IMG/VR virus record: IMGVR_UViG_3300035698_007659
Location: 1-27,786 of that record
From: a virus
DNA length: 27,786 nucleotides
Direction: 5' to 3' (one strand)
Part shown: positions 8,553-27,611 of the stretch, piece after piece
Position numbering within the stretch: the stretch's first letter is position 1
Layout: each line of letters starts with the position of its first letter
The notes under the pieces: generated by a model
Told to the model about the DNA's origin: nothing
Databases searched by the model: none
Seen by the model: the letters and a program-made list of their open reading frames with translations, nothing else
Program-made: the position numbers and the translations under genes

Positions 8553-8879
8553 TTAGTTACTGGCCTTGGTGTCACGATTCAATTGTTTGGTTTCTGCATA
8601 TCCAGCAGCTTCCTTCGCTATCTTATCTGCCTCCTTACCAGTGAGCAAATTTTCCTGTCGAGGTTTTCCTGACCCCTTTTTGTTTTTATGGTCCTTGGAC
8701 TTCAGAGCATTTCTACCCGGCCCATTCCCATTCATCCAGGTCCTCCAACACTCAAAGCCGGTGCCCGTCACGGTCTTAGCAGACCCTACGATATCACCCT
8801 TGGCATTTTTCGGATAGAAGGTGAGTTCAATAGGCGAGTTTCTTACTTCGCCCCCATCTGGATTGTCTAAGACACTCAT
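8553..8879 (-). CDS. Small unknown protein before the ribonucleotide reductase
   Basis: A 108-residue polar protein that I do not recognise. It has a beta-rich N-terminal part with FECWRTWMNG near residue 45, and a Lys-rich tail likely to be disordered. Its stop codon abuts the reductase ATG, so translation is probably coupled. AGGA is 7 bases before its ATG. It is the first gene after the terminator at 8901-8934, but no clear promoter is visible in the 20 bp between them. Confidence 0.6.
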   Translation of the reverse strand: MSVLDNPDGGEVRNSPIELTFYPKNAKGDIVGSAKTVTGTGFECWRTWMNGNGPGRNALKSKDHKNKKGSGKPRQENLLTGKEADKIAKEAAGYAETKQLNRDTKASN

Positions 8880-8900
8880 TTAATTTTCCTATAGATAGAC

Positions 8901-8934
8901 ATAAAGAAAAGGCCCCCCAAATATTTGGGGAGCC
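8901..8934 (-). terminator. Intrinsic terminator
   Basis: On the minus strand GGCTCCCCAA, a 4-nt loop ATAT and TTGGGGGGCC form a stem of nine paired bases with one mismatch, followed by TTTTCTT. It lies downstream of the noncoding segment that follows dCMP deaminase. Confidence 0.85.
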
Positions 8935-9148
8935 TTGTAAATTTTTAAGCGGCACTATTAGATATGGAGATATTACCACGATTAATTTTTCTGCCTCTCA
9001 ATGAAGCTTACTATCGTAGGTTAAACCATAAAAGGCTGGAGGCAGTACCGCTTTAACGAGTATGAACCTAATCGTAGGTTATCTACGTTTTTTAGACTCC
9101 AGCACTATTTAGATATACACCATCTGGAGGTGTCTCGCCTGTAGGTTT
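8935..9148 (-). ncRNA. Candidate structured noncoding RNA or 3' UTR element
   Basis: A 214 bp stretch without a credible gene, between the dCMP deaminase stop and an intrinsic terminator. It contains nested complementary arms: AAGCGG (8947-8952) with CCGCTT (9048-9053), and inside them CTGCCTC (8991-8997) with GAGGCAG (9039-9045). It also holds two copies of ATCGTAGGTT (9013-9022 and 9071-9080). Nested helices plus a terminator at the 3' end are what an independent small RNA or a structured 3' end would show. No known RNA family is recognised. Confidence 0.4.
8952..9116. repeat. Direct repeats flanking the noncoding segment
   Basis: GCACTATTAGATAT at 8952-8965 recurs as GCACTATTTAGATAT at 9102-9116 (one inserted T). 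Between them lie the two 10-base copies of ATCGTAGGTT. The repeats may be binding sites or traces of a local duplication. Confidence 0.6.
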
Positions 9149-9583
9149 TTACAGATATTCGAAAACGACCTCATTAGCCCTGAAATTATCAATTGCCCTA
9201 TCCATAATTTCTGCCCATCTGCCCGCCTTGTTCTGGGGCATTTCTGGTGCATATACATACTTGATACCCGCCCTAATAATTCTCTCTGAACATTCCAGAC
9301 AGGGAGAGAGAGGCCACACAAATAGATGGTAGTCCACAAGGCAGTTTACGGAAAACTGAATAGCATTAATTTCCGCATGAACTATTTTGGACAGCTTAAT
9401 CGACCTATTCAGATAGTCAGCAGGCAGGTCAAGGTCTCCCGCTGGAAACCCATTGAAACCAACTGAGGCAATAGACTTATCAGGGCGAACTATAACGCAC
9501 CCACACTTAGTAGAGGGGTCCTTTGACCATCCGCCCACTTCCTTTGCTAGGCCCAGAAATCTATACTTCCATTTTTCGTTCAA
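9149..9583 (-). CDS. dCMP deaminase
   Basis: A 144-residue cytidine/deoxycytidylate deaminase that would turn dCMP into dUMP, the substrate of the phage thymidylate synthase. The zinc site is complete: H69-A-E71 with the catalytic Glu, and P-C95-L-E-C98. The family N-terminal signature SKDPSTKCGCVIV is at 20-32 and the GFNGFP loop follows. The family domain begins only a few residues from the start, so the TTG at 9583 is the likely start codon; no in-frame ATG is available. The Shine-Dalgarno is weak. Transcription probably continues from the protease gene upstream and ends at 8901-8934. Confidence 0.9.
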   Translation of the reverse strand: MNEKWKYRFLGLAKEVGGWSKDPSTKCGCVIVRPDKSIASVGFNGFPAGDLDLPADYLNRSIKLSKIVHAEINAIQFSVNCLVDYHLFVWPLSPCLECSERIIRAGIKYVYAPEMPQNKAGRWAEIMDRAIDNFRANEVVFEYL

Positions 9584-9655
9584 TGTAGTCTTTCAACGCT
9601 TGGTCTTGCAGTAGAAACCCCACCATGAATATTTCTTTCTGCCAGACTCTTCATC

Positions 9656-10579
9656 TTATTTTTTGGTAGATTCAGAAAAACTAATCCCAACATCCTCAAC
9701 CCTACTAGCATCCTTCAAATCTTTTAGGGTGGGCATTTTAGCAGATGGGTCCAAGGCCCATTCTGCGTCCACGCTTTTAGCCCATTCTCTCATTCGTCTC
9801 ACAGGGACTATAAAGTTGAAGCCTTCTCCAGCGCCTCTTACTAGCATTCCCACATACTCTCCTTGATTATCTTTCCATTGAGAGTTATCGTTCCTTGCAA
9901 GGAAGACTCCACCACCGGATGAACCAGGAAATGCAGTAGCTGTAGTCTGGTCAAAGACAGTACCGTCTCCACTACCTAACTGGATGACTCTGCCTTGTTG
10001 AGAATAGACCCCACTAGTCATAGAGTTGGCGCCAATCTGTCCGAGCAGAGACCCCACATGAAATAGATTGGTGCCTAGTTCGGGAATTCTCTCTTCCAGG
10101 TAAAATGTGGCCGACTTGTCTACAAAGCCTAGCTTACGAACCATTAGAAGGGCTAGGTCTTCACCCTCATACGCGTCAGAATAGCGAATCACCTTGGCAT
10201 CCATCTTATATTCGCCAATTCTCCGACCACCCTCAGTTAGTTCCTGAACAATTTGGGCGTCTCGGAATTCCACCAACTGTCTGTTGGTCCCCGTCTTAGG
10301 GTCGATTACAGTGCGAACCTCTCTCAGATTATCAATTACGTGAGCTGCTGTCCACACAAAGTTAACCTTAACTGTTTCGTCACTCTCACCATCTAGCTTT
10401 ACTTCACGGGTAATTAGTACTCCAGAACCCTGACCCCCACCACCATCAGTATCTGACGACTTAATGGTTACTGAAATGTCTTGAAGGTGTTGAGCTACGC
10501 CATCTTGAGCTAAACCTACGCCTGCGATACATACTAATAGGACCAAACTAGTTACAAATGATTGAAGTCTCATAAACAA
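9656..10579 (-). CDS. Secreted trypsin-like serine protease
   Basis: A 307-residue protein with an N-terminal signal peptide: a short basic start, then a hydrophobic core SLVLLVCIAGVGLA and a likely cut after AQ near residue 25. It is followed by a chymotrypsin-fold domain. The catalytic triad is visible: H80 in WTAAHVID, D141 in GEDLALL, S221 in FPGSSGGGVF. A Gly-rich stretch (45-53) precedes the first strand of the fold. There is no PDZ domain, so it is not a full HtrA. AGGAG lies 8 bases before the ATG and a near-consensus promoter sits at 10642-10669. An exported active protease on a phage is unusual. It could act in the host periplasm, on other phages' receptors or on host surface proteins. 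Confidence 0.88.
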   Translation of the reverse strand: MFMRLQSFVTSLVLLVCIAGVGLAQDGVAQHLQDISVTIKSSDTDGGGGQGSGVLITREVKLDGESDETVKVNFVWTAAHVIDNLREVRTVIDPKTGTNRQLVEFRDAQIVQELTEGGRRIGEYKMDAKVIRYSDAYEGEDLALLMVRKLGFVDKSATFYLEERIPELGTNLFHVGSLLGQIGANSMTSGVYSQQGRVIQLGSGDGTVFDQTTATAFPGSSGGGVFLARNDNSQWKDNQGEYVGMLVRGAGEGFNFIVPVRRMREWAKSVDAEWALDPSAKMPTLKDLKDASRVEDVGISFSESTKK

Positions 10580-16196: not shown

Positions 16197-16828
16197 AGGC
16201 CCGCCCCCAGTCGTTTAATCTTATCGAGACCCCTCTCAACAGTCTGTCTAACCGCCTCCCTAGACGTACCAGCCTCATTAGCTATCTCTTGGAGGGTCCA
16301 ATCTTCCATGTAGTGGAGCTTAACATACCTCTCTTGTTGTTCGGTCAGGGCAGAACCCTTCAAAATTCTCTGTAGCATTAGGATATCTTCTTGTTGTAGG
16401 ATATCATGGTCTGGGCCGGGGTGGTCAGATGGAATCAGCTCATGTAGACTGACATCCTTATCAAAGTTGCCTATTACTTTGTCTAAAGAACTCAACTTAG
16501 GACTACTTACTCGCCTTCCAACATACGCCTGAATAGCCCAAATAGCGCACTGATTGCGATAGGCCCTTTTACTTCTCACTTTACCAGTAGAACTCTTATA
16601 GTTTGGGTCCCATCTCCAATCCGCTAGCATAATAGCCGTCGCGACATTAGAAATAGCATCCTCACTATTAATCATTTCCTGTGAAAGGCCCGGCCTATAC
16701 CTATCCCCAAATGTCCTGATAGTCTTCTTAGCTATGACCAGGTAACTATCCATAGACTCATAGTCATTATTGTCTGCGACCTCGTACTCAATCTTTTGGT
16801 CGCCGATACCCACGATGTCAACTGTCAT
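16193..16828 (-). CDS. Phage RNA polymerase sigma factor
   Basis: A 211-residue sigma70-family protein. The C-terminal region 4 is clear: ALTEQQERYVKLHYMEDWTL followed by QEIANEAGTSREAVRQTVERGLDKIKRL (about 155-207), a helix-turn-helix that recognises a -35 element. Residues 30-110 have the helical, Arg/Trp-rich character of region 2. The size is like T4 gp55 and other late-transcription sigma factors, which redirect host RNA polymerase to late promoters. AGGCGAAG precedes the ATG. Its promoter set is unknown; the four promoters seen here look like host sigma70 sites. Confidence 0.85.
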   Translation of the reverse strand: MTVDIVGIGDQKIEYEVADNNDYESMDSYLVIAKKTIRTFGDRYRPGLSQEMINSEDAISNVATAIMLADWRWDPNYKSSTGKVRSKRAYRNQCAIWAIQAYVGRRVSSPKLSSLDKVIGNFDKDVSLHELIPSDHPGPDHDILQQEDILMLQRILKGSALTEQQERYVKLHYMEDWTLQEIANEAGTSREAVRQTVERGLDKIKRLGAGL

Positions 16829-17942
16829 AGCTTCGCCTAATTTCTGTAGAGGATACGCATGGGTCTAAATATTCGTCATTGTCGAGAAAAGAGACTATGG
16901 AGGGGAGGATTGCCAGCCTATCATACCTATACAATGTATCCTTTCTAGGGAACACAATTAGTTTATGCTTTTTAAGGAGCATGGTCCTAATCAAAGTGTC
17001 AACATTTCCATATTTAGGGTCTTCCAACCTATTAAAGGTGTCTGCTCCCATCATATACTTGACTCCCTCTGGATAAATTTCACACTTCTGTAGGAAGAGA
17101 GGGGAGTTTGAAACTAGTACTCCTGCCAGCGGAATAGTGTGGGAGATAGCCCTGATAGTCAGTAGTCTGGTCTGTATATCCTTATAGTCTAGTTGGGGCT
17201 TATCCGTATTGGTCATAGAAATTTCTAACCAAACTGGTCGGCCACTATGTTTAGCTGCAACCTTCATCATTTCTATATGGCCGACATGAAGAGGATTGAA
17301 AGACCCTGGGAAAATAGTGTCGCCAGGCTGTAGGCCCTTACCCTTATAAATAATATGAGTAAAATCCTTTTGCCCAGACATAACAGAGCCAATATTTCCG
17401 CAATGAAATTGACTAATCTTAATGCTGTCTATCACATCAGGATGCAATACAGAGGAGTCCCCAGTATACCAGTACTCCATCATATGTAGAATGAAGTCCC
17501 GACAAAAATCTTCCTCATTCTCCCTAGTGCTTGGAACTTCAAATTTGTATGACGCCCCATACGTTCTGTCCCAACGGTGCCACGAGACATGGACCTCATG
17601 CCTTCTGCCCTCCCTCTCTTCCCTGTCCGTCAACCCCAGCTTTGCTGTAGCCCCAATGCCATTAGCCTCTGAAGGGTCCACCCCCAACTCTACACACCTA
17701 TTATAGGCGGCGACCGCCATTTTATTAGCACTATCCGCACAAGCATAGTGTTCTGGATAACAGCCCAATAGCTTACGAGTAGACTCCTGCCCATAATTAA
17801 CGAGACCCTCCACTAAATAGCTGGAAGCGCCCCCATACCTCAGTAGTTCTCCGAAGGCAGCCGTACCTCCCCCGGTTATTACAACTACACTTTTCTTTTC
17901 TGCTCGACATATGTTGCCTGCAACATTCTTAGAATTCTCCAT
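16818..17942 (-). CDS. Fusion of CinA/PncC-like domain and NMN adenylyltransferase
   Basis: A 374-residue two-domain protein. Residues about 15-155 resemble the CinA C-terminal (PncC) fold: VVVITGGGTAAFGELLRYGG, then ASSYLVEGLVNYGQES, a conserved ANKMAVAAYNRC helix and IGATAKLG. PncC deamidates NMN. However, the catalytic Ser of the usual E-S-C-T-G-G loop is absent (here VITGG). Residues about 205-374 are a nucleotidyltransferase of the NadD/NMNAT type: IFPGSFNPLHVGH (210-222) and the C-terminal SSTEIRRS. This domain makes NAD or its deamido form. It overlaps the sigma gene by 11 bp. A role in keeping NAD levels up during infection is inferred. Confidence 0.8.
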   Translation of the reverse strand: MENSKNVAGNICRAEKKSVVVITGGGTAAFGELLRYGGASSYLVEGLVNYGQESTRKLLGCYPEHYACADSANKMAVAAYNRCVELGVDPSEANGIGATAKLGLTDREEREGRRHEVHVSWHRWDRTYGASYKFEVPSTRENEEDFCRDFILHMMEYWYTGDSSVLHPDVIDSIKISQFHCGNIGSVMSGQKDFTHIIYKGKGLQPGDTIFPGSFNPLHVGHIEMMKVAAKHSGRPVWLEISMTNTDKPQLDYKDIQTRLLTIRAISHTIPLAGVLVSNSPLFLQKCEIYPEGVKYMMGADTFNRLEDPKYGNVDTLIRTMLLKKHKLIVFPRKDTLYRYDRLAILPSIVSFLDNDEYLDPCVSSTEIRRSYDS

Positions 17943-19889: not shown

Positions 19890-21020
19890 CTAATGTCCAT
19901 CAGTGGGATTCTTCCTACTAAGGTAGTCCGCACTAATTGACTTGAAGATAACTCGGCCAATCTTGGGGTCGGTTCTCTCAACCAGTGGAGTAATGACGAC
20001 GCCCTCCCTTCCTTTGAAACCTACCTTAACTCCCTCAAAGGTCGTCTTACCATTTGTAAGCTCCTCTATTTTAGAGGGGTCATAGGGACCTGTCCAGAGA
20101 ATAGGCACCATGGGAATACCGAATTGCACAAGATACCTTTTCTTTTCTGCATGACTCAGGTATTCTTCATTGACTGCAATATCAAAGGCGGCGAACCGTT
20201 TTTCTCCATTGGTCAGTCCATAGTTCATGTCTTGAACACCAGACCCAAAGATTTCTCCGAAGACAACTACGTTGGCCCCCTTATAATCCTTGCTAACCTT
20301 CTGGAGCATTAGGGGGATTTCTGGGTGCCATTTCAGGGGCTCAGCATAGAGACCTTCCATGGCACTTTTCTTCCTGGTATTATGGCTACCAACAACGACA
20401 AAGTGTTCGTCGTTTCCCTTAGCGGGGTCTACTACCCAGCCAGCACGAAAATTCGTGCCGTGGCACTTTTCAGTCACCACAACTCTCTCGCGAGTAGCTA
20501 GGACTTCTGGATAGTTCTTCCAGTTCTCAATGCTTGTATACTTATGGAAGGTAACCAGGTCTCTCTCTACGTCACCCTGAGTAGACTTAATGGGCGGCTC
20601 CCACTTAGTAATACCAAGCTCCAGTGCAATGTCGTCTACGAGGTCCCATCCAGTGAAGTTGGGAACGTCAGCCAAGCCAGCGACGATGGTTGCGTCGGTC
20701 GGAGTCATAATGGTTCCGTATGAGGGCTCCCCACGCAGACGAGCGGCCTTTACTCTACGGGCAGTAGGGCGTTCGTCCTCTGGCAGGCCGTCGTAGCCCT
20801 TGGGCAGCTCCGCTAGATAGTTGCCGATGCCCAGGTGTTCGTAGATGTGCTGGGGAAGGATGGCGTCAGGGGGAATATAGATTACATTGTCCCCTACCTT
20901 AAAGATATCCTTCTTGATAACGATTTGCCACCCCTTAATCTTCGCCAGAGCTAATCGGTCGGCCCCTGGGTGTTCCTTAACCTCTAGGATGGGAGTATAA
21001 TCAACAATGAGTTTTGACAT
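19890..21020 (-). CDS. Rnl5-type (DRB0094-like) RNA ligase
   Basis: A 376-residue ATP-dependent ligase of the nucleotidyltransferase superfamily with the layout of Deinococcus Rnl5: an OB-like N-terminal module (1-55; HPGADRLALAKIKGWQIVI) before the adenylyltransferase domain. Seen: motif I EKCHGTNFR with the nucleophile K185 and G188, motif IIIa VVFGEIFGSGVQ, motif IV REGVVITP, motif V VIFKSIS. Rnl5 enzymes seal 3'-OH/5'-phosphate nicks in RNA. Kinase, phosphoesterase, Ro60-like and tRNA genes lie upstream in the same direction, so tRNA or RNA repair is the likely job. AGGA lies 8 bases before the ATG. tRNA ligases of the T4 Rnl1 type differ in motif I context. Confidence 0.88.
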   Translation of the reverse strand: MSKLIVDYTPILEVKEHPGADRLALAKIKGWQIVIKKDIFKVGDNVIYIPPDAILPQHIYEHLGIGNYLAELPKGYDGLPEDERPTARRVKAARLRGEPSYGTIMTPTDATIVAGLADVPNFTGWDLVDDIALELGITKWEPPIKSTQGDVERDLVTFHKYTSIENWKNYPEVLATRERVVVTEKCHGTNFRAGWVVDPAKGNDEHFVVVGSHNTRKKSAMEGLYAEPLKWHPEIPLMLQKVSKDYKGANVVVFGEIFGSGVQDMNYGLTNGEKRFAAFDIAVNEEYLSHAEKKRYLVQFGIPMVPILWTGPYDPSKIEELTNGKTTFEGVKVGFKGREGVVITPLVERTDPKIGRVIFKSISADYLSRKNPTDGH

Positions 21021-21039
21021 TTGAATGTTCCTTTATTTA

Positions 21040-21552
21040 TTAACGCCCTGTAGAACCAAATCCGCCATCACCACGCTCAGTCTCATCCAGTTCGTCAACG
21101 AACGTGCAGGTCGCCTCATAGTTCTTCTGAATAATGAACTGGATAATGCGGTCGCCCTCAAAAACCCTCTTGACTTTTCCACTAAGGTTAATGAGTGAGA
21201 CTAACCATTCGCCTCGGTAGTCGGAATCAATAACTCCAGCCAGACGATGTACATTATCTACTGCCCCCATACCTGAACGGTCCCATAGGCAGGCCCCATA
21301 ACCATCCGGCACGGCAATGGCTAGTCCGGTGCGAAATACGTGAGACTTACCTGGCATCAAAGCAAACATGTATTTGTATTCAGTACAGTTAGGGCCACAC
21401 CCATTTACTGGAAGCTCCCTAAAAGAGGAGTCCCTGACTACATGAAGGTCCCATCCTATGCTGCCTGCTGCCCTAGTAGGAAGTTTAGCTTCCTCATGTA
21501 ACTTCTTACATTCAACTCTAATCATATCCCATTCCCACATATCATCAGACAT
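21040..21552 (-). CDS. dut: dUTPase
   Basis: A 170-residue trimeric-type dUTP pyrophosphatase, which removes dUTP and supplies dUMP for thymidylate synthase. All five motifs are seen: AAGSIGWDLH (I), DRSGMG (II), GVIDSDYRGEW (III), EGDRIIQFII (IV) and RGDGGFGSTGR (V). The loop between motifs I and II carries two Cys (NGCGPNC). The ATG lies after the tRNA-array terminator. AGGGG five bases before it is partly in a short hairpin (CCTGTAAGCAGG), which could limit translation. No promoter was seen between terminator and start, so expression may depend on read-through. Confidence 0.93.
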   Translation of the reverse strand: MSDDMWEWDMIRVECKKLHEEAKLPTRAAGSIGWDLHVVRDSSFRELPVNGCGPNCTEYKYMFALMPGKSHVFRTGLAIAVPDGYGACLWDRSGMGAVDNVHRLAGVIDSDYRGEWLVSLINLSGKVKRVFEGDRIIQFIIQKNYEATCTFVDELDETERGDGGFGSTGR

Positions 21553-21572
21553 AAAAACCCCTGCTTACAGGC

Positions 21573-21606
21573 ATAAAAAAAGCCTACACGTTTTCACATG
21601 TAGGCT
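21573..21606 (-). terminator. Intrinsic terminator of the tRNA array
   Basis: Minus strand AGCCTACA (21606-21599) pairs with TGTAGGCT (21588-21581) across a 10-nt loop and is followed by a run of Ts. It lies seven bases after the 3' end of tRNA-Ser(GGA). Confidence 0.92.
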
Positions 21607-21612
21607 GTTCAG

Positions 21613-21695
21613 CGGAAGACATGGGATTTGCACCCACAACCCGTCTTAGGGGCGACCGCTTTCCAGGCGGCTTGCTAACTACTCGCTTATCTTCC
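21613..21695 (-). tRNA. tRNA-Ser (anticodon GGA)
   Basis: Acceptor GGAAGAT/GTCTTCC with discriminator G, anticodon stem GCCGC/GCGGT with loop CTGGAAA (anticodon GGA, reads UCC/UCU), a long class II variable arm and T arm GTGGG/CCCAT. No CCA is encoded. The last tRNA before the terminator. Confidence 0.9.
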
Positions 21696-21821
21696 AAGCA
21701 TATCTAAAAATAAATAGGTATAAACACATATAGCTAAAGGTACTGGACAAGAATACAGGGCAAATAGTACCCACAATCCGTCCTTATCTATCTTAGCCAG
21801 GGCGAAGTTCATGATGTTCAT
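21687..21821 (-). CDS. Small membrane-type protein (44 residues) ending inside tRNA-Ser
   Basis: ATG at 21821 directly follows the TGA of the 41-residue gene upstream. It reads MNIMNFALAKIDKDGLWVLF and then a hydrophobic run (ALYSCPVPLAICVYTYLFL) fitting one membrane helix. Its TAA lies nine bases inside the tRNA-Ser gene. A coding role is plausible but unproven because the tRNA must be cut out of the same transcript. Confidence 0.4.
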   Translation of the reverse strand: MNIMNFALAKIDKDGLWVLFALYSCPVPLAICVYTYLFLDMLGR

Positions 21822-21947
21822 TCAATGAAACAATCCCTTGCAGGTAAAACCTTGCCTACGAGCATCGTCTCGTTTGGCGTCTAAAGATTCACCCTTTACT
21901 AATATCTGCTTACCACATCCAATACAAAATAGATATTCTTTACTCAT
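21822..21947 (-). CDS. Tiny zinc-binding-like protein (41 residues)
   Basis: Reads MSKEYLFCIGCGKQILVKGE, with C-x2-C at 8-11 and a further Cys at 36 (FTCKGL), then basic residues, as in small zinc-ribbon proteins of phages. It starts four bases after the 3' end of tRNA-Thr(GGT), and no obvious Shine-Dalgarno is present. Real gene status is likely but not certain. Confidence 0.5.
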   Translation of the reverse strand: MSKEYLFCIGCGKQILVKGESLDAKRDDARRQGFTCKGLFH

Positions 21948-21950
21948 AAG

Positions 21951-22023
21951 AGCCTTCGCTGAGAATCGAACTCAGACCTTTTCTATACCAAAGAAAAATG
22001 CACACCAGTATCACCACAAAGGC
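21951..22023 (-). tRNA. tRNA-Thr (anticodon GGT)
   Basis: Acceptor GCCTTTG/CGAAGGC (one G-U) with discriminator T, D arm GTG/CAT, anticodon stem TTTCT/AGAAA with loop TTGGTAT (anticodon GGT) and T arm CTGAG TTCGATT CTCAG. Five bases separate it from tRNA-Gln(TTG). Confidence 0.88.
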
Positions 22024-22028
22024 GTAAG

Positions 22029-22096
22029 CTGCGACCTTGAGAATCGGACTCAATTTGGGAGTTTCAAAGACTCCTACCTAGACCACTAGTGTCGCA
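22029..22096 (-). tRNA. tRNA-Gln (anticodon TTG), short D arm
   Basis: Acceptor TGCGACA/GGTCGCA (six pairs plus one A-G mismatch), discriminator G, anticodon stem GGAGT/ACTCC with loop CTTTGAA (anticodon TTG), T arm TTGAG/CTCAA with loop TCCGATT. Only 15 nt separate the acceptor and anticodon stems (CTAGTGGTCTAGGTA), fewer than usual. Confidence 0.8.
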
Positions 22097-22293
22097 ATAT
22101 GTGGTTGCCAAAGCCACCTGTTTTGTCCCACCACCAACCCGCAGTACGAAACCGTCTCCATACCACTAAAATTGCCCGTGTCCCGTACTGGCATACGGTC
22201 GTGGAGGTCTGTATCAGGGCTTTCGCCCTCTGGACCTCAGCTCTCCTACCAGGGAGAGCGGGGCGATAGTCGGCTACCGAAGTAACCAACAAG
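22097..22293 (-). ncRNA. Structured RNA with cloverleaf-like fold; candidate Y-like RNA
   Basis: The 197 bp between tRNA-Ile and tRNA-Gln contain no credible gene but many helices on the minus strand. There is a UUCG-capped hairpin (22287-22272). A hairpin GCTCTCC/GGAGAGC (22259-22240) has a CTGGTA loop resembling a tRNA D loop. A long hairpin GAGGTC/GACCTC (22238-22204) is capped by AGGGC-GAAA-GCCCT, and a fourth is CCGTA/TACGG (22198-22183). GCCC/GGGC (22264-22261 with 22177-22174) and ACTA/TAGT (22270-22267 with 22168-22165) can close the last three into a four-way junction. Bacterial Y RNAs that bind Ro60 contain tRNA-like modules, and a Ro60-like gene lies upstream. No family match could be tested. 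Confidence 0.45.
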
Positions 22294-22367
22294 TAGGAAG
22301 CCTGAAAATCGAATTCAGCACGTTCATGATATAAGCATGATTCCCTCAACCAGGGGGACCGCTTCCC
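22294..22367 (-). tRNA. tRNA-Ile (anticodon TAT)
   Basis: Acceptor GGGAAGC/GCTTCCT with discriminator A, D arm TCCC/GGGA, anticodon stem TCATG/CATGA with loop CTTATAT (anticodon TAT, reads AUA), T arm CTGAA TTCGATT TTCAG. A full canonical cloverleaf. Confidence 0.93.
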
Positions 22368-22408
22368 ATAATGCCTAAAGGAATGACCTCTAGGACTTTT
22401 GTTTCATC

Positions 22409-23032
22409 TTATTTACTAATGTTGTGTGTTTCTAACAACCCAATATCTTCCAAGCTCATTCTAGGTCCCGTAGGAGGCATTGCCTTTGGGTCGCCAGCAG
22501 GCAGTAGAACCCTCCTCAATACTTCTTCTGGGAACTCTTCAGTCAGTAGGAAGTTGCCCTTAGGCTCCTCACCACTATGACAATTTAAACATTTGTTCCT
22601 GCTAAACACATCCATTGGAGAGTCTGCAACTACATCCGCCCCGCCCACATTAATCAGCGTTCCCCTGGTTAGTTCGCCGCCAAAAAATCCGGTAACAGCG
22701 ACCAAGATAGCGGGGAGTGTAGCAGAAAGAAATCTGTATAGGGGGTTTTGCCATTTGTAATAGGCGACAACCGCGAGCAAATTAGTACAACAAGTTAGGA
22801 TACCGAGGGCTTGATGAACACTTAGTATCCAGGAGGCTGCATAGGCTCCGCTGGCCAGTAGTCCAAAGGTTACAGCTATAGGAGAGACAAGGGCTGAGGC
22901 TATAAGGCAGGTGAATGTAACCTGTGAGGAAATATGCTGCCTGTCTAGATATCGAAGCGTCTCAACTACGGCTGCAACTATAAGGAGGGCGACTGGGAAG
23001 TGAACGAGGGCTGCATGAACAAGGCCAAACAT
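22409..23032 (-). CDS. Membrane protein with DUF2231-like helices and C-terminal c-type heme segment
   Basis: A 207-residue protein. Residues 1-118 form four hydrophobic segments, the first with HAALVHFPVALLIV, a pattern like the DUF2231/predicted membrane domain that carries a conserved His in HFP. Residues 140-207 are a heme-binding tail: C148-L-N-C151-H152, then EPKGNFLL, LLPAGDPKAMPPTGPRMS and EDIGLLE. That order matches the planctomycete cytochrome C (PSCyt) type, in which MPP supplies a ligand Met (M185). It would put a covalent heme on the outer side of the inner membrane, so it depends on host heme-attachment machinery. The ATG is three bases after tRNA-Gln(CTG), whose 3' acceptor AGGATTA serves as Shine-Dalgarno. 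A host-derived metabolic gene seems likely. Confidence 0.8.
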   Translation of the reverse strand: MFGLVHAALVHFPVALLIVAAVVETLRYLDRQHISSQVTFTCLIASALVSPIAVTFGLLASGAYAASWILSVHQALGILTCCTNLLAVVAYYKWQNPLYRFLSATLPAILVAVTGFFGGELTRGTLINVGGADVVADSPMDVFSRNKCLNCHSGEEPKGNFLLTEEFPEEVLRRVLLPAGDPKAMPPTGPRMSLEDIGLLETHNISK

Positions 23033-23035
23033 AAG

Positions 23036-23106
23036 ATAATCCTAAAAGATTCGAACTTTTACTTACTGCGTCAGAGGCAAGCGTGCTACCATTACACTAA
23101 GGATTA
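23036..23106 (-). tRNA. tRNA-Gln (anticodon CTG)
   Basis: Acceptor TAATCCT/AGGATTA, D arm GTG/CAC with TAATGGTAG loop, anticodon stem CTTGC/GCAGT with loop CTCTGAC (anticodon CTG), T arm AAAAG TTCGAAT CTTTT. The discriminator is T, unusual for Gln. The downstream membrane gene starts three bases after it. Confidence 0.82.
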
Positions 23107-23120
23107 AGATAAAATGCTAG

Positions 23121-23189
23121 AGCCCCTATACAGTATCGCGCTGTATCACTCGCCGTACAAAAGCAAGGTGCTGACTTCAGCTTAGAGGC
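23121..23189 (-). tRNA. Degenerate tRNA-Thr-like gene (anticodon TGT) or tRNA mimic
   Basis: A cloverleaf can be drawn: acceptor GCCTCTA/TAGGGGC with discriminator T, small D arm GCTG/CAGC with a 4-nt loop AAGT, anticodon stem TTGCT/GGCGA with loop TTTGTAC (anticodon TGT), and T stem TACAG/CTGTA with loop CGCGATA. The D loop lacks GG and the T loop lacks TT. It is therefore either a decayed tRNA-Thr or an RNA that copies tRNA shape. The ends resemble the tRNA-Thr(GGT) acceptor (GCC...GGC-T). Confidence 0.5.
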
Positions 23190-23277
23190 TTCAAAAAAAA
23201 TAACAGTGCCAAGGGTGGAACGAAGATTCTTTGAGCATCACAAAGTTGCTGTATACTGGCGTGTTAGCGTTATTAAG
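23190..23277. other. Spacer between tRNA-Ser(TGA) and the tRNA-like gene
   Basis: Eighty-eight bases with no gene or clear helix. On the minus strand a run of eight Ts (23201-23194) precedes the tRNA-like gene by five bases, but no stem lies before it, so it is not called as a terminator. Confidence 0.5.
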
Positions 23278-23360
23278 CGGAGGAAAAAGGAGTCGAACCC
23301 TCATGTTTTACCATGGCCTAGCGTTCAAAACTAGTTGAGCACCAACGCTCGCTTTCCTCC
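23278..23360 (-). tRNA. tRNA-Ser (anticodon TGA)
   Basis: Acceptor GGAGGAA/TTCCTCC with discriminator G, D arm GAGC/GCTC with GTTGGT loop, anticodon stem CTAGT/GCTAG with loop TTTGAAC (anticodon TGA), long variable arm with CATG/CATG stem, T arm GAGGG/CCTTT with loop TTCGACT. Class II, as expected for Ser. Confidence 0.92.
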
Positions 23361-23438
23361 ATAACATCTCTATATATCCACCTTTAAAGTTAGAGTAGGT
23401 AGCTTTGTGGAAATTCTTAAAATCATATTCTAACATAG

Positions 23439-23510
23439 TAGGCAATAAAGGAATCGAACCTTTGTTTCCTGGATGTAAACCAGACGTACTCACCGCTGTA
23501 CGAATCGCCC
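23439..23510 (-). tRNA. tRNA-Val (anticodon TAC)
   Basis: Acceptor GGGCGAT/ATTGCCT (G-U pairs at positions 1 and 5), discriminator A, D arm GTAC/GTAC with AGCGGTGA loop, anticodon stem TCTGG/CCAGG with loop TTTACAT (anticodon TAC), T arm AAAGG TTCGATT CCTTT. First tRNA after the array promoter. Confidence 0.93.
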
Positions 23511-23622
23511 ATAAATTATGACAAGTAGTGAGCCGACAGAGGTTGTACATGTAGTCGTTTAAGCAAGGTATGTGGGCCTCGCACTCTGCATTCATAATCG
23601 TTTTGTTCTCTTCAACAAATAT
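23511..23622. other. Leader of the tRNA array
   Basis: The 112 bp between promoter and tRNA-Val. An ATG frame (23595 and on) continues through the tRNAs, has no good Shine-Dalgarno and is not called. No stable hairpin stands out, and it is probably removed during tRNA 5' processing. Confidence 0.5.
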
Positions 23623-23650
23623 ATTATACACTAAGCTGAGGAAAAGTCAA
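23623..23650 (-). promoter_or_regulatory. Sigma70-type promoter of the tRNA array
   Basis: Minus strand: TTGACT (23650-23645), 16 bp spacer, TATAAT (23628-23623). The -10 is perfect and the -35 has one mismatch. Start predicted near 23616. It heads the tRNA run that ends at the terminator at 21573-21606, about 2.0 kb later. Confidence 0.88.
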
Positions 23651-23746
23651 GCCCTGTTCGTAGTTTTTCAGGGATTTTCTCAAAAAGCAAGGCCAGGTTT
23701 TTCGTTCGGGGGAGCCCCACACTGACTTTCTTTTCTGCCAGACCTC

Positions 23747-23914
23747 TTAAAATTTCCCATTCTTTCTATCTGCTACTTCCCTAGCTCGCTCAGCCGTCAT
23801 GTGGTATGAGAGGCTGAGTCTGCGAGTGTTCAAGTCTAACAAATAATAGACCACCTTATTCGGGTCTTTCAGGTGGTTGGCTGGTAACTTAATATCTTGA
23901 ATGATATATCTCAT
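23747..23914 (-). CDS. Small unknown protein (55 residues) coupled to the Ro60-like gene
   Basis: The ATG overlaps the Ro60-like stop as ATGA, a clear sign of coupled translation. The protein starts MRYIIQDIKLPANHLKDPNK and continues VVYYLLDLNTRRL, then a basic helix (AERAREVADRKNG). It is compact, soluble and unrecognised. As the last gene before the tRNA promoter it may work with the Ro60-like protein. The 96 bp between its stop and the promoter hold no clear terminator. Confidence 0.65.
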   Translation of the reverse strand: MRYIIQDIKLPANHLKDPNKVVYYLLDLNTRRLSLSYHMTAERAREVADRKNGKF

Positions 23915-25506
23915 AGGGTCACCTTGTTAATTTCACTAGCGAAGTCGGTAGACTTTCCAGTCATAAAGTTGCTAATTACAGGCCACACACTATCAGTGAA
24001 GCCTCCAATGTTAAGGCAGTTCTGCCCATCAGAGACCTGAGTATCTCCATAGGGCTGAATATCAATACAGGCAAGCCTAGCATTATGGTTCCTCTTGCGG
24101 AACTTAGCCCACTCAGACGACATTTCTGTTACAGAAGCGGCCCCATACCAAACTACTTGGTCCCCAGGCTGTCTCAACCAAGACTGATTGTCGGAAACAT
24201 AGATGACGGCATCACCCTTCCAGTTGGTCTGGTTCAATAGACGAAGCCCTAGTTGGGCAGACGTACCACCGCCTACTCCACAGTTCTTAAACTTTTCAGA
24301 GTTGGTAGCTACAGAGTCACGGGGATTAACCTGTACCTCTTTAGCGTTGGTTGCCCAAGCAATGACTTTGCAGTTAGGGTTGGTTCTCACTAGAGAGGCT
24401 GCAATAAGGGCCGCAACATCTACGCAGGTGGTTTTTGTTACGTGTCCATTATATCCTGAGCTTCCCGTAACGGGACTGTGCATAGAGCCAGACAAGTCAA
24501 TACAGATGGCTACATTTGACCCCAAAGCTGGCACGTTCTCCGTAGCAATCTCAAGGGCGTCCTGCAACGCTAATGAAATCTCCATAGGAAGCCCAACAAT
24601 ATTCTGGAAGGTGGTCAACAACTGATAGGGGAAAGCATTACACTTTCGAACCTCGACAGGGTCCCTTAGTTTGTTAGCCAACTGGGTTGTCAGCTCCTTA
24701 TCCTCAAACACCCCATTCCTCTGAAGCATGTTCAAGTTCATGCGAAGGGTATTCCAAGGCATGTTGAGGGCGATTTGCTTCCAGTGGTCAGGAGTTAGGT
24801 TACAATTAGTGAGGGCTCTGAACTGCATATCTGGCAGGGCCCTACTGTTGTCCGCCTTGAAGGCTTCGAACTCTTGGGCGGTCGTAGCGAGTAGGGCAGG
24901 GTTGTACTCCTTACCTACAAGGTAGCCAAAGGTAGCCTCTTGAGAAGGGTTAGCTGGCTTAGGGTGAACCATTCTTAGAATATCTAGTACTGATGGGTTG
25001 GAGTGTCCAATAGAAGAGATGAATAGCTTGTTGTTAGACTGACTAGTAAGCCAGTTTTGCACCAACCCCTTAACGAGTGAGCCCAAAGACTTACGTCCAG
25101 TAACGCCTGACCGCAAAATCCTAATGAAGACGGTCAACATCTTCATATTGGTAATGACGCGAGGGAAAGTGCGAGTAAGAAGAGTTTGAGCCTCAACAGA
25201 GGTCTTTGCGCGAGCAGCCAACACTACCAACAGGTAGGCAGGAACGTCCTTCATCTTTGCGGTTTCGTGTCCGTAGACCGCCGCCTTAGCAATGAATTCG
25301 GAACGCACATTCTCTACTAGGGCCTGCACTCTCTCTAGCTGCTCTCCAGCGGACGCATAGTAGATACCATTGAAGGTTCCGGTGACCACATACTGACAGA
25401 GGGCATTTTCATCTGTAAAGGCATAGGCTTTTCCACCCGCTACATTAACGGTGTTGGTAGACTGACCTGAAGATAGCTTGGTATTGAACAATTGTTTGTT
25501 GACCAT
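23911..25506 (-). CDS. Ro60/TROVE-VWA RNA-binding protein
   Basis: A 531-residue Ro60 (Rsr) homolog. Residues about 25-320 form the TROVE helical-repeat ring that binds misfolded RNA ends and Y RNA: KMKDVPAYLLVVLAARA (84-100), GRKSLGSLVKGLVQNWL (137-153) and PSVLDILRMVHPKP (171-184) are family landmarks. Residues about 330-510 are a von Willebrand A domain with a full MIDAS: D337-L-S-G-S in CIDLSGSM, then GGGTSAQ and YVSDN. Ro60 checks and stabilises noncoding RNA. Length is close to bacterial Rsr. A strong promoter (25561-25588) and AGGA 9 bases ahead of the ATG point to its own expression. tRNAs, a candidate Y-like RNA, an RNA ligase and kinase/phosphoesterase genes surround it. Confidence 0.9.
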   Translation of the reverse strand: MVNKQLFNTKLSSGQSTNTVNVAGGKAYAFTDENALCQYVVTGTFNGIYYASAGEQLERVQALVENVRSEFIAKAAVYGHETAKMKDVPAYLLVVLAARAKTSVEAQTLLTRTFPRVITNMKMLTVFIRILRSGVTGRKSLGSLVKGLVQNWLTSQSNNKLFISSIGHSNPSVLDILRMVHPKPANPSQEATFGYLVGKEYNPALLATTAQEFEAFKADNSRALPDMQFRALTNCNLTPDHWKQIALNMPWNTLRMNLNMLQRNGVFEDKELTTQLANKLRDPVEVRKCNAFPYQLLTTFQNIVGLPMEISLALQDALEIATENVPALGSNVAICIDLSGSMHSPVTGSSGYNGHVTKTTCVDVAALIAASLVRTNPNCKVIAWATNAKEVQVNPRDSVATNSEKFKNCGVGGGTSAQLGLRLLNQTNWKGDAVIYVSDNQSWLRQPGDQVVWYGAASVTEMSSEWAKFRKRNHNARLACIDIQPYGDTQVSDGQNCLNIGGFTDSVWPVISNFMTGKSTDFASEINKVTL

Positions 25507-25560
25507 TTCAATTTTCCTAGTTGGGGTGAACTCTTCTTAATATCTTACTTTAACAAGTCT

Positions 25561-25588
25561 ATTATAGGGGTTGAAGCTCCAGAGTCAA
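25561..25588 (-). promoter_or_regulatory. Sigma70-type promoter of the Ro60-like gene
   Basis: Minus strand: TTGACT (25588-25583), 16 bp spacer, TATAAT (25566-25561). Predicted start near 25554, leader about 48 nt. The upstream context CCCCTTGACT resembles the phoH and protease promoters. Confidence 0.85.
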
Positions 25589-25604
25589 GGGGCGTCACCC
25601 ATTT

Positions 25605-26567
25605 TTAAACGAATTTTTCCGTCAGTTTCTGCATGTTCGTAGTACCAGACATACTTACGTTCTGTACTAGGCTCGCCGCAATACTAATATCATTAGTCTT
25701 ACGACCAGACAAACCCTTATGGTCTTCCACAGTCTTCAATATTTTGATAGAGGTTAGAATTTGCTCCTTACTAGAAACCTGAAAAGACTCCCTATTGTTT
25801 AGTCGAGCTGCCTCAGTATATACAACTAGCTCTGGCTTAGTCTTGATAACTCTATCTAGCACTACCTTGGATAGTCCTTGAACGGTGTGGCAGGCGGTAC
25901 CAGGCTTCACAGCCCTTAGGGTCTCCGTCAACTTACTGGGAATATAGTCTAAGGAAGGGTCGCAGTAGAAACCCCTCCAATCTTGAAGCTCCTTTGAGTC
26001 GTCTGCGTCTTCCCCCATCAATTCCTCCCATGTTCCAATCCCAGGTATAAACACTGCAGGAGAATGCTCAGCCAACATAGCGCAAGGAACAAAGTCTACA
26101 ATATCTTTCTTATGCTCTGCTGATAGCTCATCAATCCTAGATAAAATGTAGGCCCCAGCAGATTTCCCTTTACTAAAGTTAGCTGCGAACAGAGCCTTCG
26201 CCACCAATAGGTCCCCTTTATCCATATGGGCAATCAGTTTTACCCACTCATTATGAACAGCCTTACACCAATAGGGAGCGACCTTCTTTTTGAACCATGC
26301 TAAGGCAATATTTTCAGGAGCTGTACTAAGGGGAGAGTTAGGTCCTACTTTAAAGTCGCTCGTTAGATAATGATGAATGTCTTTAAATAGAGGGTAGAAG
26401 GCATAAGGGTTAAAATTACCATAAGTAGACATAGTTGAACTAGTTCTCTCAACATATTTGACTTGTGGGCCATCTAGGTATACGGAAGCACATTTATTAC
26501 CATAGTCTACCTTAAATCCCTTATAGTTCCCCATCTCATTCCTAATAACTTTACAGGACAAACCCAT
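25605..26567 (-). CDS. Unknown 320-residue protein in the RNA-repair block
   Basis: No family recognised. The first 40 residues alternate strands and turns (MGLSCKVIRNEMGNYKGFKV); the rest is mostly helical. Notable segments are Trp-rich (ALAWFKKKVAPYWCKAVHNEW, about 88-108), an acidic turn (GEDADDSKE) and a Lys-rich end (RKTNDISIAASL then MQKLTEKFV). No nucleotide-binding loop or membrane helix is visible. It lies between the phosphoesterase and the Ro60-like promoter and is co-directional with both. AGGA is 8 bases before the ATG. A role in the same RNA pathway is suggested by position only. Confidence 0.7.
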   Translation of the reverse strand: MGLSCKVIRNEMGNYKGFKVDYGNKCASVYLDGPQVKYVERTSSTMSTYGNFNPYAFYPLFKDIHHYLTSDFKVGPNSPLSTAPENIALAWFKKKVAPYWCKAVHNEWVKLIAHMDKGDLLVAKALFAANFSKGKSAGAYILSRIDELSAEHKKDIVDFVPCAMLAEHSPAVFIPGIGTWEELMGEDADDSKELQDWRGFYCDPSLDYIPSKLTETLRAVKPGTACHTVQGLSKVVLDRVIKTKPELVVYTEAARLNNRESFQVSSKEQILTSIKILKTVEDHKGLSGRKTNDISIAASLVQNVSMSGTTNMQKLTEKFV

Positions 26568-26577
26568 TTAATATTCC

Positions 26578-27159
26578 TTAGTGGTAAGAAGTATCTTTAT
26601 TATGATGGTCAACAGTAACCGGCTCAACCCCCTTAAACATATCCACAATATCGTCAAGCAACCAGGGCTTAAAGTCATTGTTGTCTACTACAACGTCAAG
26701 CTGTCGCCCGACCGTCTTGTAGTTTCCGTGGCAATGGCCAAACAAATTGATGGAGCCTCTCCCCACCTCATTCCACGAAGCAATAGGATAATGAAACATA
26801 CAGATAAGGACTCCCCGATGCCTCAGCTCATAGTAAGAGTGACAAGAAGAGAATAGGCCCTGTAGTTCAGGCTTCGTCTGGATGGCATGGTCATGGTTCC
26901 CATACAGGAAAATGATATTCTCGCAGTTAATCCTAGCTCGATGCTCCGGGATTAGCTTTTTATTACCAAAGGCAAAGTCGCCTAAATAAAATAGGGTGTC
27001 TTCTTTCTGCACGACCGCATTTATATTGTTGATGATTGTGTCGTTCATGGCTTCGATTGACTCGAAGTTTCGATAACCACCCTTCCATGTAGACATAGAG
27101 GGACCGCAAATATTCACATGATTTATGTGAAAATCTGAGCTGATATAGATATTACTCAT
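26578..27159 (-). CDS. Calcineurin-like metallophosphoesterase
   Basis: A 193-residue phosphoesterase of the calcineurin-like superfamily with all metal motifs: D9-F-H11 (SSDFHINH), G60-D61 (YLGDFAFG), G87-N-H-D-H91, H123 in MFHYPIA, and G141-H-C-H144. Such enzymes split phosphomonoesters or diesters. In bacterial Pnkp a domain of this family removes 2',3'-cyclic or 3' phosphates from RNA ends. Here it is a separate gene whose start overlaps the stop of the polynucleotide-kinase-like gene (TAATG). That pairing suggests end-healing of RNA, though other roles (cyclic nucleotide or phosphate turnover) cannot be excluded. Confidence 0.88.
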   Translation of the reverse strand: MSNIYISSDFHINHVNICGPSMSTWKGGYRNFESIEAMNDTIINNINAVVQKEDTLFYLGDFAFGNKKLIPEHRARINCENIIFLYGNHDHAIQTKPELQGLFSSCHSYYELRHRGVLICMFHYPIASWNEVGRGSINLFGHCHGNYKTVGRQLDVVVDNNDFKPWLLDDIVDMFKGVEPVTVDHHNKDTSYH

Positions 27160-27611
27160 TAATATTCTTTCTTCAATCTCTCTAACTTGCCCATAAACAA
27201 CTCAGGACTTTCATAGCGACCCAACATTCTCTCCAAGGTTTCCCTTGGAACATTATGAGTCCCCTTCACAATGAGCTGTTCGATATCAAAAGCCCACGGA
27301 GTAGTGGGTTCCACAACCACAATCTCATAGTTGGCTTTCAGAGCCATCTCGAAATAGGGCTTAGCCTCTTTGAAGGTAGTATTAGTATTATCTACAATCA
27401 CGTTGACTCCAGCGTCCACCAATTTCTGAGCCCGCCACTGAGTCCAAACGTGGGCGGCATGTAGCTTATCAATATCAAAGTAGTAGTTGTTATTGAAGGT
27501 GAAGTAGTCGTCAGCATTAATTACAACTGCGTTGTGAGTAACCGCACCAACTGCTGCTGCTGTCGATTTTCCGCACCCTGGGAGCCCCTTTAACAGTATC
27601 AACTTATTCAT
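27159..27611 (-). CDS. P-loop polynucleotide-kinase-like protein
   Basis: A 150-residue P-loop kinase. Walker A G9-L-P-G-C-G-K-S-T is near the start, NADDYF (32-37) matches the acidic substrate loop of 5'-polynucleotide kinases and N4BP2-type kinases, and VIVDNTNT (71-78) is the second strand motif. T4 Pnkp and bacterial Pnkp kinase domains share this arrangement. It would add a 5' phosphate to broken RNA so that the Rnl5-type ligase can seal it; this substrate is inferred. AGAGGA is about 8 bases before the ATG. Its stop shares a base with the phosphoesterase ATG. Confidence 0.82.
   Translation of the reverse strand: MNKLILLKGLPGCGKSTAAAVGAVTHNAVVINADDYFTFNNNYYFDIDKLHAAHVWTQWRAQKLVDAGVNVIVDNTNTTFKEAKPYFEMALKANYEIVVVEPTTPWAFDIEQLIVKGTHNVPRETLERMLGRYESPELFMGKLERLKKEY

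What the first reader, a model, noticed from the sequence alone, without database searches (positions are those of the whole stretch)
19890..27611. A phage RNA-repair and RNA-surveillance block with a Ro60-like protein
A PNK-like kinase and a calcineurin-like phosphoesterase overlap by one base, resembling bacterial Pnkp split into two genes. Within 8 kb in the same direction lie a Ro60-like TROVE/VWA protein with an intact MIDAS, seven tRNAs, a candidate Y-like RNA and an Rnl5-type ligase with the nucleophile Lys. Together they could heal, seal, check and replace tRNAs cut by host anticodon nucleases. Ro60 together with a split Pnkp and Rnl5 in one phage would be an unusual combination.
Basis: partly seen in the sequence, partly recalled or inferred. 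Interest (0 to 1): 0.88.

Follow-up and report, generated by a model that had tools for sequence, protein, structure and literature searches.

The report
Phage RNA-repair genes beside a Ro60-like protein
A fragment of a phage genome carries, within 8 kb, enzymes that look able to clean up and re-join broken RNA, a Ro60-like RNA-binding protein and a set of tRNA genes; each part and most pairings are already known from other phages, so this is a compact example of a known strategy rather than a new system.

Summary
The protein-coding observation holds. Window 19890-27611 (- strand) encodes an AAA_33/PNK-like kinase and a calcineurin-like phosphoesterase (PE) overlapping by one base, a full-length Ro60/TROVE-VWA protein with an intact MIDAS, and an Rnl5-type RNA ligase (TIGR02306, above its cut-off). 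tRNAs: five by ARAGORN, a sixth (Ser-UGA) well supported, a seventh degenerate. The Y-like RNA was not found: no Rfam YrlA match, and no match to covariance models built from phage Y RNAs.

Among 45 clusters of kinase relatives, 30 have the PE within 2.2 kb and 26 an RNA ligase within 2.5 kb; 23 have both, always same strand. At least one other viral contig has a compact PE-kinase-Rnl5 operon. None of these clusters has Ro within 10 kb.

The combination is unusual but not unprecedented. Ro proteins occur in 167 phage records. Listeria phage P100 has Ro, RNA ligase and PE within 8.2 kb, Brevundimonas phage Bambus has Ro, Rnl5 and tRNAs within 9.3 kb, and one 634-kb phage record has all four genes, dispersed. 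A 2021 jumbo-phage survey already proposed this repair logic. 'Split Pnkp' is functional analogy. Verdict: new member of a known kind.

The parts
27159..27611 (-). PNK-like P-loop kinase, 150 aa (Walker A GLPGCGKST, NADDY motif)
   Evidence: PF13671 3.7e-17, phrog_2071 4.8e-29, phrog_505 1.3e-16; 42% and 39% identical to kinases next to PE and RNA ligase in Vibrio phage Ceto and Pseudomonas phage Pyxpy01
26578..27159 (-). Stand-alone calcineurin-like phosphoesterase, 193 aa, overlapping the kinase by one base (TAATG)
   Evidence: phrog_547 1.7e-48; PDB 1xm7 aq_1665 4.6e-7; complete metal motifs
25605..26567 (-). Orphan protein of 320 aa between PE and Ro; no relative found
   Evidence: no hit in Pfam, PHROGs, NCBIfam, PADLOC, phages by tblastn at E<=1 or viral contigs; single-sequence AlphaFold pLDDT 38.5, unusable
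25561..25588 (-). Promoter-like site TTGACT-16-TATAAT just upstream of the Ro gene
   Evidence: 11 of 12 consensus matches; the scan as a whole is not clearly above shuffles
23911..25506 (-). Ro60/Rsr-like TROVE + VWA protein, 531 aa
   Evidence: AlphaFold model pLDDT 73.7 matches Ro60 structures, Foldseek E 5.7e-16 to 1.6e-13
23623..23650 (-). Promoter-like site TTGACT-16-TATAAT upstream of the tRNA array
   Evidence: 11 of 12 consensus matches
23438..23510 (-). tRNA-Val(UAC)
   Evidence: ARAGORN; Rfam 61.2 bits
23279..23360 (-). tRNA-Ser(UGA), missed by ARAGORN
   Evidence: Rfam tRNA-Sec model 30.0 bits, below gathering cut-off; acceptor, D, anticodon and T arms readable
23035..23106 (-). 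tRNA-Gln(CUG)
   Evidence: ARAGORN; Rfam 59.3 bits
22293..22367 (-). tRNA-Ile(UAU)
   Evidence: ARAGORN; not matched by Rfam
22098..22292 (-). Strongly structured GC-rich RNA candidate of unknown kind, not a Y RNA by the models used
   Evidence: 22093-22295: dG -80.9 kcal/mol, z -2.98, 0 of 200 shuffles as stable; no Rfam hit
22029..22097 (-). Degenerate tRNA-Gln(UUG)-like cloverleaf (7th 'tRNA')
   Evidence: minimum-energy fold is a cloverleaf; not found by ARAGORN or Rfam; short D-loop and T-loop UCCGAUU
21950..22023 (-). tRNA-Thr(GGU)
   Evidence: ARAGORN; Rfam 46.8 bits
21612..21695 (-). tRNA-Ser(GGA)
   Evidence: ARAGORN; Rfam 26.3 bits
21581..21606 (-). Terminator-like hairpin with T run closing the tRNA array
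   Evidence: 11 pairs followed by a run of T
19890..21020 (-). Rnl5-type RNA ligase, 376 aa (N-terminal OB domain, C-terminal nucleotidyltransferase; Lys185)
   Evidence: TIGR02306 178 bits > 151; PF21189 OB + PF09414; PDB Naegleria RNA ligase 5cot 6.5e-12

Best explanation
The block is a set of neighbouring counter-attack genes of a large phage. The PE removes 2',3'-cyclic or 3' phosphates and the kinase phosphorylates 5'-OH ends left by host ribonucleases (healing); the Rnl5 ligase seals the resulting 3'-OH/5'-PO4 ends; phage tRNAs top up the tRNA pool. The Ro60-like protein binds misfolded or broken small RNAs through its ring and sorts them, probably keeping phage tRNAs and other structured RNAs fit for use or handing damaged ones to a host exonuclease. 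Shown: gene identities, intact catalytic motifs, and conserved clustering of relatives of the three enzymes in other phages. Inferred: biochemical activities, RNA as the substrate, the triggering nuclease, and any physical cooperation of Ro with the enzymes. Two separate promoter-like sites and a terminator suggest several transcription units, not one operon.
For: Family assignments. Conserved kinase-PE-ligase neighbourhood in relatives: 45 kinase clusters, PE in 30 (all within 2.2 kb although up to 10 kb flanks were searched), RNA ligase in 29 (26 within 2.5 kb), both within 3 kb in 23, all same strand. Control genes are far rarer: ThyA 5, Prs 5, NAMPT 5, PhoH 1, RNR 1, UvsX 0, dUTPase 0. Annotated examples: Vibrio phage Ceto, Pseudomonas phage Pyxpy01, Vibrio phage phiKT1024 with PE, ligase, kinase and a CCA-adding enzyme plus a Ro protein elsewhere. 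A viral contig with PE 6551-7204, kinase 7768-8286 and over-cut-off Rnl5 8601-9665. tRNAs lie near Ro in most phages read. Published reasoning that phages use ligase + kinase + phosphatase (calcineurin-like in some) + TROVE + tRNAs for RNA repair: PMC7824862 section 3.4.9.
Against: No Ro within 10 kb of any of the 45 kinase clusters. The three Ro relatives L101-L103 (38-43% identical to the window's) have no PE, kinase or ligase within 10 kb, and on their whole contigs only L101's has a PE and a weak kinase hit, both distant. So Ro is not a fixed partner of the cassette. No Y RNA in the window. The residue of T4 Pnkp known (from memory) as R38 is Phe in the window's kinase. Rnl5 enzymes are known (from memory) for sealing nicks in duplexes. 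No biochemistry.
Confidence: 0.6

Rival explanations
1. Kinase and PE act on small metabolites (nucleotides, NAD+-derived signals) as part of a nucleotide/NAD salvage or signal-clearing set; the RNA ligase, Ro and tRNAs are unrelated neighbours.
For: In Ceto and Pyxpy01 the cassette is followed by PRPP synthetase and nicotinamide phosphoribosyltransferase, and both recur near the kinase in 5 of 45 clusters. The window itself has a CinA + nucleotidyltransferase-like protein at 16818-17942. The kinase belongs to a broad P-loop family that also hits metabolite kinases, and phrog_2071/547 profiles ring in many cellular genomes.
Against: RNA ligases are near the kinase in 26-29 of 45 clusters, five to six times as often as the NAD genes; phrog_505 polynucleotide kinase E 1.3e-16.
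Confidence: 0.2
2. The three enzymes form the RNA-repair unit, but Ro belongs to a separate module with tRNAs (and, in other phages, a Y RNA) that controls tRNA/structured-RNA quality or decay; its closeness to the cassette here is accidental.
For: Own promoter-like sites before Ro and before the tRNA array. Y RNAs of YrlA type near Ro in Gordonia Sixama and GMA2, Mycobacterium Myrna and ScoobyDoobyDoo, Microbacterium FuzzBuster and contig L102, and upstream in the tRNA array of Myxococcus Mx1. 0 of 45 kinase clusters with Ro.
Against: P100 and Bambus also place Ro within 10 kb of an RNA ligase (+PE or tRNAs); [quoted passage not shown]
Confidence: 0.45
3. The cassette mainly repairs nicked duplex RNA or RNA-DNA hybrids (the known Rnl5 preference) rather than tRNAs cut in the anticodon loop.
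For: Ligase is a TIGR02306 equivalog of DRB0094 of D. radiodurans, an RNA ligase up-regulated by irradiation (PMC1274311); its duplex-nick preference is from memory.
Against: Many sister cassettes carry Rnl1/Rnl2-like ligases in the same place, so the substrate of the cassette may not be set by the ligase class; the neighbouring tRNA array points to tRNAs.
Confidence: 0.2

Closest known systems
RNA-repair sets of jumbo phages (Iyer et al. 2021, PMC7824862)
   Same: ATP-dependent RNA ligase + polynucleotide kinase + phosphatase (calcineurin-like in some) + tRNAs, with a ROT/TROVE protein in a small subset; proposed as an answer to host tRNA cleavage
   Different: There the phosphatases are mostly HAD type, ligases mostly Rnl1/Rnl2, and the parts need not be clustered; here Rnl5 and all parts lie within 8 kb
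Brevundimonas phage vB_BpoS-Bambus (ON529853)
   Same: Rnl5 ligase 207182-208381, three tRNAs and Ro 215065-216450 within 9.3 kb; phrog_547 PE at 171 kb
   Different: Ro on the opposite strand, PE distant, no phrog_2071 kinase found
Listeria phage P100 / CKA15
   Same: Ro-like protein, RNA ligase and PE on one strand within 8.2 kb beside tRNAs; putative Y RNAs discussed for CKA15 (PMC12282133)
   Different: Ligase not Rnl5 over cut-off; no kinase found
Myxococcus phage Mx1 (OR576727)
   Same: Closest Ro among phage records (41% identity over 97%), in a tRNA array with a dUTPase nearby; Y RNA in the array
   Different: No Rnl5, phrog_547 or phrog_2071 match
Bacterial Pnkp/Hen1 and Pnkp1-Rnl-Hen1 complexes (PMC4411300)
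   Same: Kinase, phosphatase and ligase functions joined for repair of ribotoxin-cleaved tRNA
   Different: No Hen1 recognised in the window; kinase, PE and ligase are separate proteins in variable gene order across phages; no sequence evidence of descent from Pnkp
D. radiodurans Rsr and DRB0094 (Rnl5)
   Same: One organism with a Ro orthologue and an Rnl5 ligase, plus a polynucleotide kinase DRB0098 (PMC1274311, PMC1997131)
   Different: Not one compact block; phosphatase of HD type
Thermus phage phiLo Ro60 (PDB 9kop, 9l5y)
   Same: Solved structure of a phage Ro60; the window's model matches it
   Different: 18% identity; no phrog_547, phrog_2071 or Rnl5 found in phiLo

Membership tests
Ro60/Rsr (TROVE + VWA) | HEAT-repeat TROVE ring followed by VWA domain over the full length | tested here: met
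   full-length match to phrog_850 and Rsr 2nvo; Foldseek prob 1.00 to Ro60 structures; Pfam TROVE itself below cut-off
Ro60/Rsr (TROVE + VWA) | Intact MIDAS (DxSxS...T...D) | tested here: met
   D337, S339, S341, T415, D439 invariant
Ro60/Rsr (TROVE + VWA) | Cognate Y RNA | tested here: inconclusive
   none in the window by Rfam YrlA or models R1/R2; the contig is a fragment, so it may lie outside
Ro60/Rsr (TROVE + VWA) | RNA binding in vitro | not testable with these tools
   the conserved His181 of the HPKP motif aligns with a His of human and Xenopus Ro, only suggestive
Rnl5 RNA ligase (DRB0094 type) | N-terminal OB + C-terminal ligase domain, above curated cut-off | tested here: met
   TIGR02306 178 vs 151 bits; PF21189 and PF09414
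Rnl5 RNA ligase (DRB0094 type) | Nucleotidyltransferase motifs with nucleophile Lys | tested here: met
   EKCHGTN (K185), FGEIFG, AAFDI, EGVVI, IFKSIS
5'-polynucleotide kinase | P-loop and catalytic Asp | tested here: met
   GLPGCGKST, NADDY; phrog_505 1.3e-16
5'-polynucleotide kinase | Arg of the T4 Pnkp DDYR motif | tested here: not met
   NADDYF: Phe in place of Arg (R38 of T4 Pnkp from memory; not shown to define all PNKs)
5'-polynucleotide kinase | Activity on 5'-OH RNA | not testable with these tools
   needs the purified protein
Bacterial Pnkp (split) | Sequence kinship of the PE with the Pnkp phosphatase domain | tested here: inconclusive
   PE hits phrog_547 and 1xm7; no Pnkp among PDB hits
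Bacterial Pnkp (split) | Hen1 partner gene | tested here: inconclusive
   no methyltransferase among the window proteins scanned; not every window protein was scanned and the contig is a fragment
Bacterial Pnkp (split) | Fixed kinase-phosphatase-ligase order | tested here: not met
   order varies: ligase-kinase-PE (Ceto), PE-ligase-kinase (Pyxpy01, phiKT1024), PE-kinase-ligase
Phage PE-kinase-RNA ligase neighbourhood | Three genes close together on one strand | tested here: inconclusive
   kinase and PE adjacent as in relatives, but the ligase is 5.6 kb from the PE, farther than in nearly all relatives

The most novel reading that the evidence does not exclude
The block is one functional RNA-surveillance and repair unit in which a phage Ro60 that has lost or replaced its Y RNA (perhaps by the structured RNA at 22098-22292) delivers broken tRNAs to the phage's own healing and sealing enzymes, with the orphan 320-aa protein as a physical link.
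Probability: 0.07. Interest if true: 0.75.

Novelty: new member of a known kind. Interest (0 to 1): 0.36.

Why it matters
The role of Ro60 proteins in phages is unknown although 167 phage records carry one. A phage in which Ro lies beside healing and sealing enzymes and tRNAs is a convenient test case for whether Ro feeds repair or decay. The survey also shows a widely conserved phage PE-kinase-RNA ligase neighbourhood and recurring Y RNAs near phage Ro genes, both open to direct biochemical test.

Tried and rejected
Close relatives of the window's own Ro, kinase or ORF320 in viral contigs: none; the profile search with divergent Ro proteins had no usable pattern. ORF320: no homologue; single-sequence AlphaFold unusable, so no fold search. 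Y RNA in the window: folds of 23511-23632, 23111-23260 and 25507-25604 are no more stable than shuffles; YrlA and phage-specific models negative. 22093-22295 is strongly folded, but I rejected it as a Y RNA because it lacks the T-arm/D-arm module and any model match. Some R1/R2 hits in tRNA arrays were rejected as the T arm of one tRNA joined to the D arm of the next (e.g. L009:12589-12744). 'One operon' rejected: promoter-like sites and a terminator divide the block. PADLOC gave only partial matches to kinase and PE domains.
Full report
What is there. The window is a 27.8-kb viral contig with nearly all genes on the - strand. Read 5' to 3' on that strand, the block is: kinase (27611-27159), PE (27159-26578, one-base overlap TAATG), an orphan of 320 aa (26567-25605), a Ro60-like protein (25506-23911), a tRNA array with an inserted membrane/cytochrome-like gene (23510-21612), dUTPase (21552-21040) and an RNA ligase (21020-19890). 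The kinase is an AAA_33/PNK-like P-loop protein, the PE a phrog_547 calcineurin-like enzyme with all metal motifs, and the ligase a TIGR02306 (DRB0094, Rnl5) member above its curated cut-off. The Ro protein matches phrog_850, D. radiodurans Rsr and the vWA_Ro60 Pfam model. Its MIDAS residues are invariant among nine phage Ro proteins, and an AlphaFold model built with three viral relatives (pLDDT 73.7) finds Ro60 structures as its only PDB matches at E <= 0.001.

tRNAs and Y RNA. ARAGORN finds five tRNAs. A sixth, Ser(UGA), is seen through the tRNA-Sec model; a seventh Gln(UUG)-like cloverleaf is degenerate. No Y RNA was found: Rfam YrlA gives nothing in 21500-25600 up to E 10. Other Ro phages do carry one: Sixama 46.8 bits, GMA2 43.1, Mx1 32.0, ScoobyDoobyDoo 28.8, all below Rfam's gathering score of 69 but with low E-values in the first two. 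They have a tRNA module in permuted order (T arm, closed acceptor-like hairpin, D arm). Models R1 and R2 built from these found further copies next to Ro in FuzzBuster, Myrna and the Mx1-like contig L102, but nothing in the window. The best remaining structured RNA, 22093-22295 (z -2.98), is not a Y RNA by these tests. As the contig is a fragment, a Y RNA may lie outside it.

Do kinase and PE belong to RNA repair? Kinase relatives were collected from viral contigs and phages and their flanks searched with five PE, six ligase and four Ro queries. After clustering to 45 kinases, 30 have a PE, all within 2.2 kb, and 29 have an RNA ligase, 26 within 2.5 kb; 23 have both within 3 kb, and every one is on the kinase's strand. 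Genes of nucleotide and DNA metabolism are far rarer in the same flanks. Some contigs are related, so this is not a formal probability, but in the clusters with full 10-kb flanks all 15 PE genes lie within 2.2 kb of the kinase. The gene order differs between phages, which argues against descent from a split Pnkp and for an assembled cassette. One contig (L085) holds PE, kinase and over-cut-off Rnl5 within 3.1 kb, so the enzyme trio of this window has a precedent. In the window the ligase is separated from the kinase-PE pair by ORF320, Ro, tRNAs and dUTPase. The NAD-salvage genes beside the cassette in Ceto and Pyxpy01 keep a metabolite rival alive.

Is Ro part of it? Ro-like proteins occur in 167 of 50,697 phage records, the nearest being Myxococcus phage Mx1, and mostly sit near tRNAs. 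No kinase cluster has Ro within 10 kb, and the contigs of the three related Ro proteins L101-L103 lack Rnl5 and a nearby PE or kinase. Pairings do recur: P100 has Ro, RNA ligase and PE within 8.2 kb, Bambus has Rnl5, tRNAs and Ro within 9.3 kb, and phiKT1024 has both the cassette and Ro, far apart. The 634-kb phage LR745206 has all four genes, dispersed. Of the 16 other Ro phages examined with the four profiles it is the only one with all four at clear scores, so four-way clustering within 8 kb is rare in this sample but not a new functional combination.

Relation to the literature. The jumbo-phage survey PMC7824862 (section 3.4.9) describes ATP-dependent RNA ligases accompanied by polynucleotide kinases and phosphatases (calcineurin-like in a few), tRNAs, and a ROT/TROVE protein in a small subset, as repair of tRNAs cut by host RNases. 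Phage tRNAs as evaders of tRNA-cutting defence are also published (PMC10264068, listed, abstract only read). Bacterial Rsr and Y RNA genes occur in an RtcB repair operon induced by broken tRNAs (PMC7790460). A phage Ro60 structure (Thermus phage phiLo, 9kop/9l5y) is in the PDB. The finding therefore adds a compact member rather than a new kind.

Limits. No expression or activity data; the kinase lacks the Arg of the T4 Pnkp DDYR motif (that motif is recalled, not looked up); Rnl5's preference for duplex nicks is recalled, not tested; neighbourhood counts depend on tblastn sensitivity and on the contigs that the pattern scans happened to catch.

Noticed in passing
window 22409-23032 (-): Membrane protein with a DUF2231-like N-terminal part and a c-type cytochrome motif (CLNCH) at the C-terminal end, lying inside the tRNA array; odd for a phage.
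   Followed up: no
window 22093-22295 (-): GC-rich, strongly folded non-coding stretch (dG -80.9, z -2.98, 0 of 200 shuffles as stable) with no Rfam match and no BLAST relative in phages.
   Followed up: partly
window 16818-17942 (-): CinA-like N-terminal part fused to a cytidylyltransferase-like (possibly NMN adenylyltransferase) domain; possible NAD-related counter-defence.
   Followed up: no
window 25605-26567 (-): 320-aa orphan protein between PE and Ro, without any detectable relative in the libraries and collections searched.
   Followed up: partly
L009:12815-12962, L023:5134-5284, L025:2557-2721 and 2727-2883, L005:9710-9868, L027:2646-2739, L002:8235-8395, L102:11914-12066: YrlA-type Y RNAs near Ro genes in Gordonia, Mycobacterium, Microbacterium and Myxococcus phages and one metagenomic contig, two tandem copies in ScoobyDoobyDoo; none appears in the feature tables of the named phage records read.
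   Followed up: yes
L023:4719-5130, L009:11935-12356, L002:9732-10109: tmRNA genes in the Ro/tRNA regions of phages GMA2, Sixama and Mx1, not among the annotated features listed.
   Followed up: no
L023:5440-5496: Pistol ribozyme (56.8 bits) inside the tRNA array of Gordonia phage GMA2.
   Followed up: no
window 9656-10579 (-): Trypsin-like peptidase with a likely signal peptide, unusual as a phage gene.
   Followed up: no
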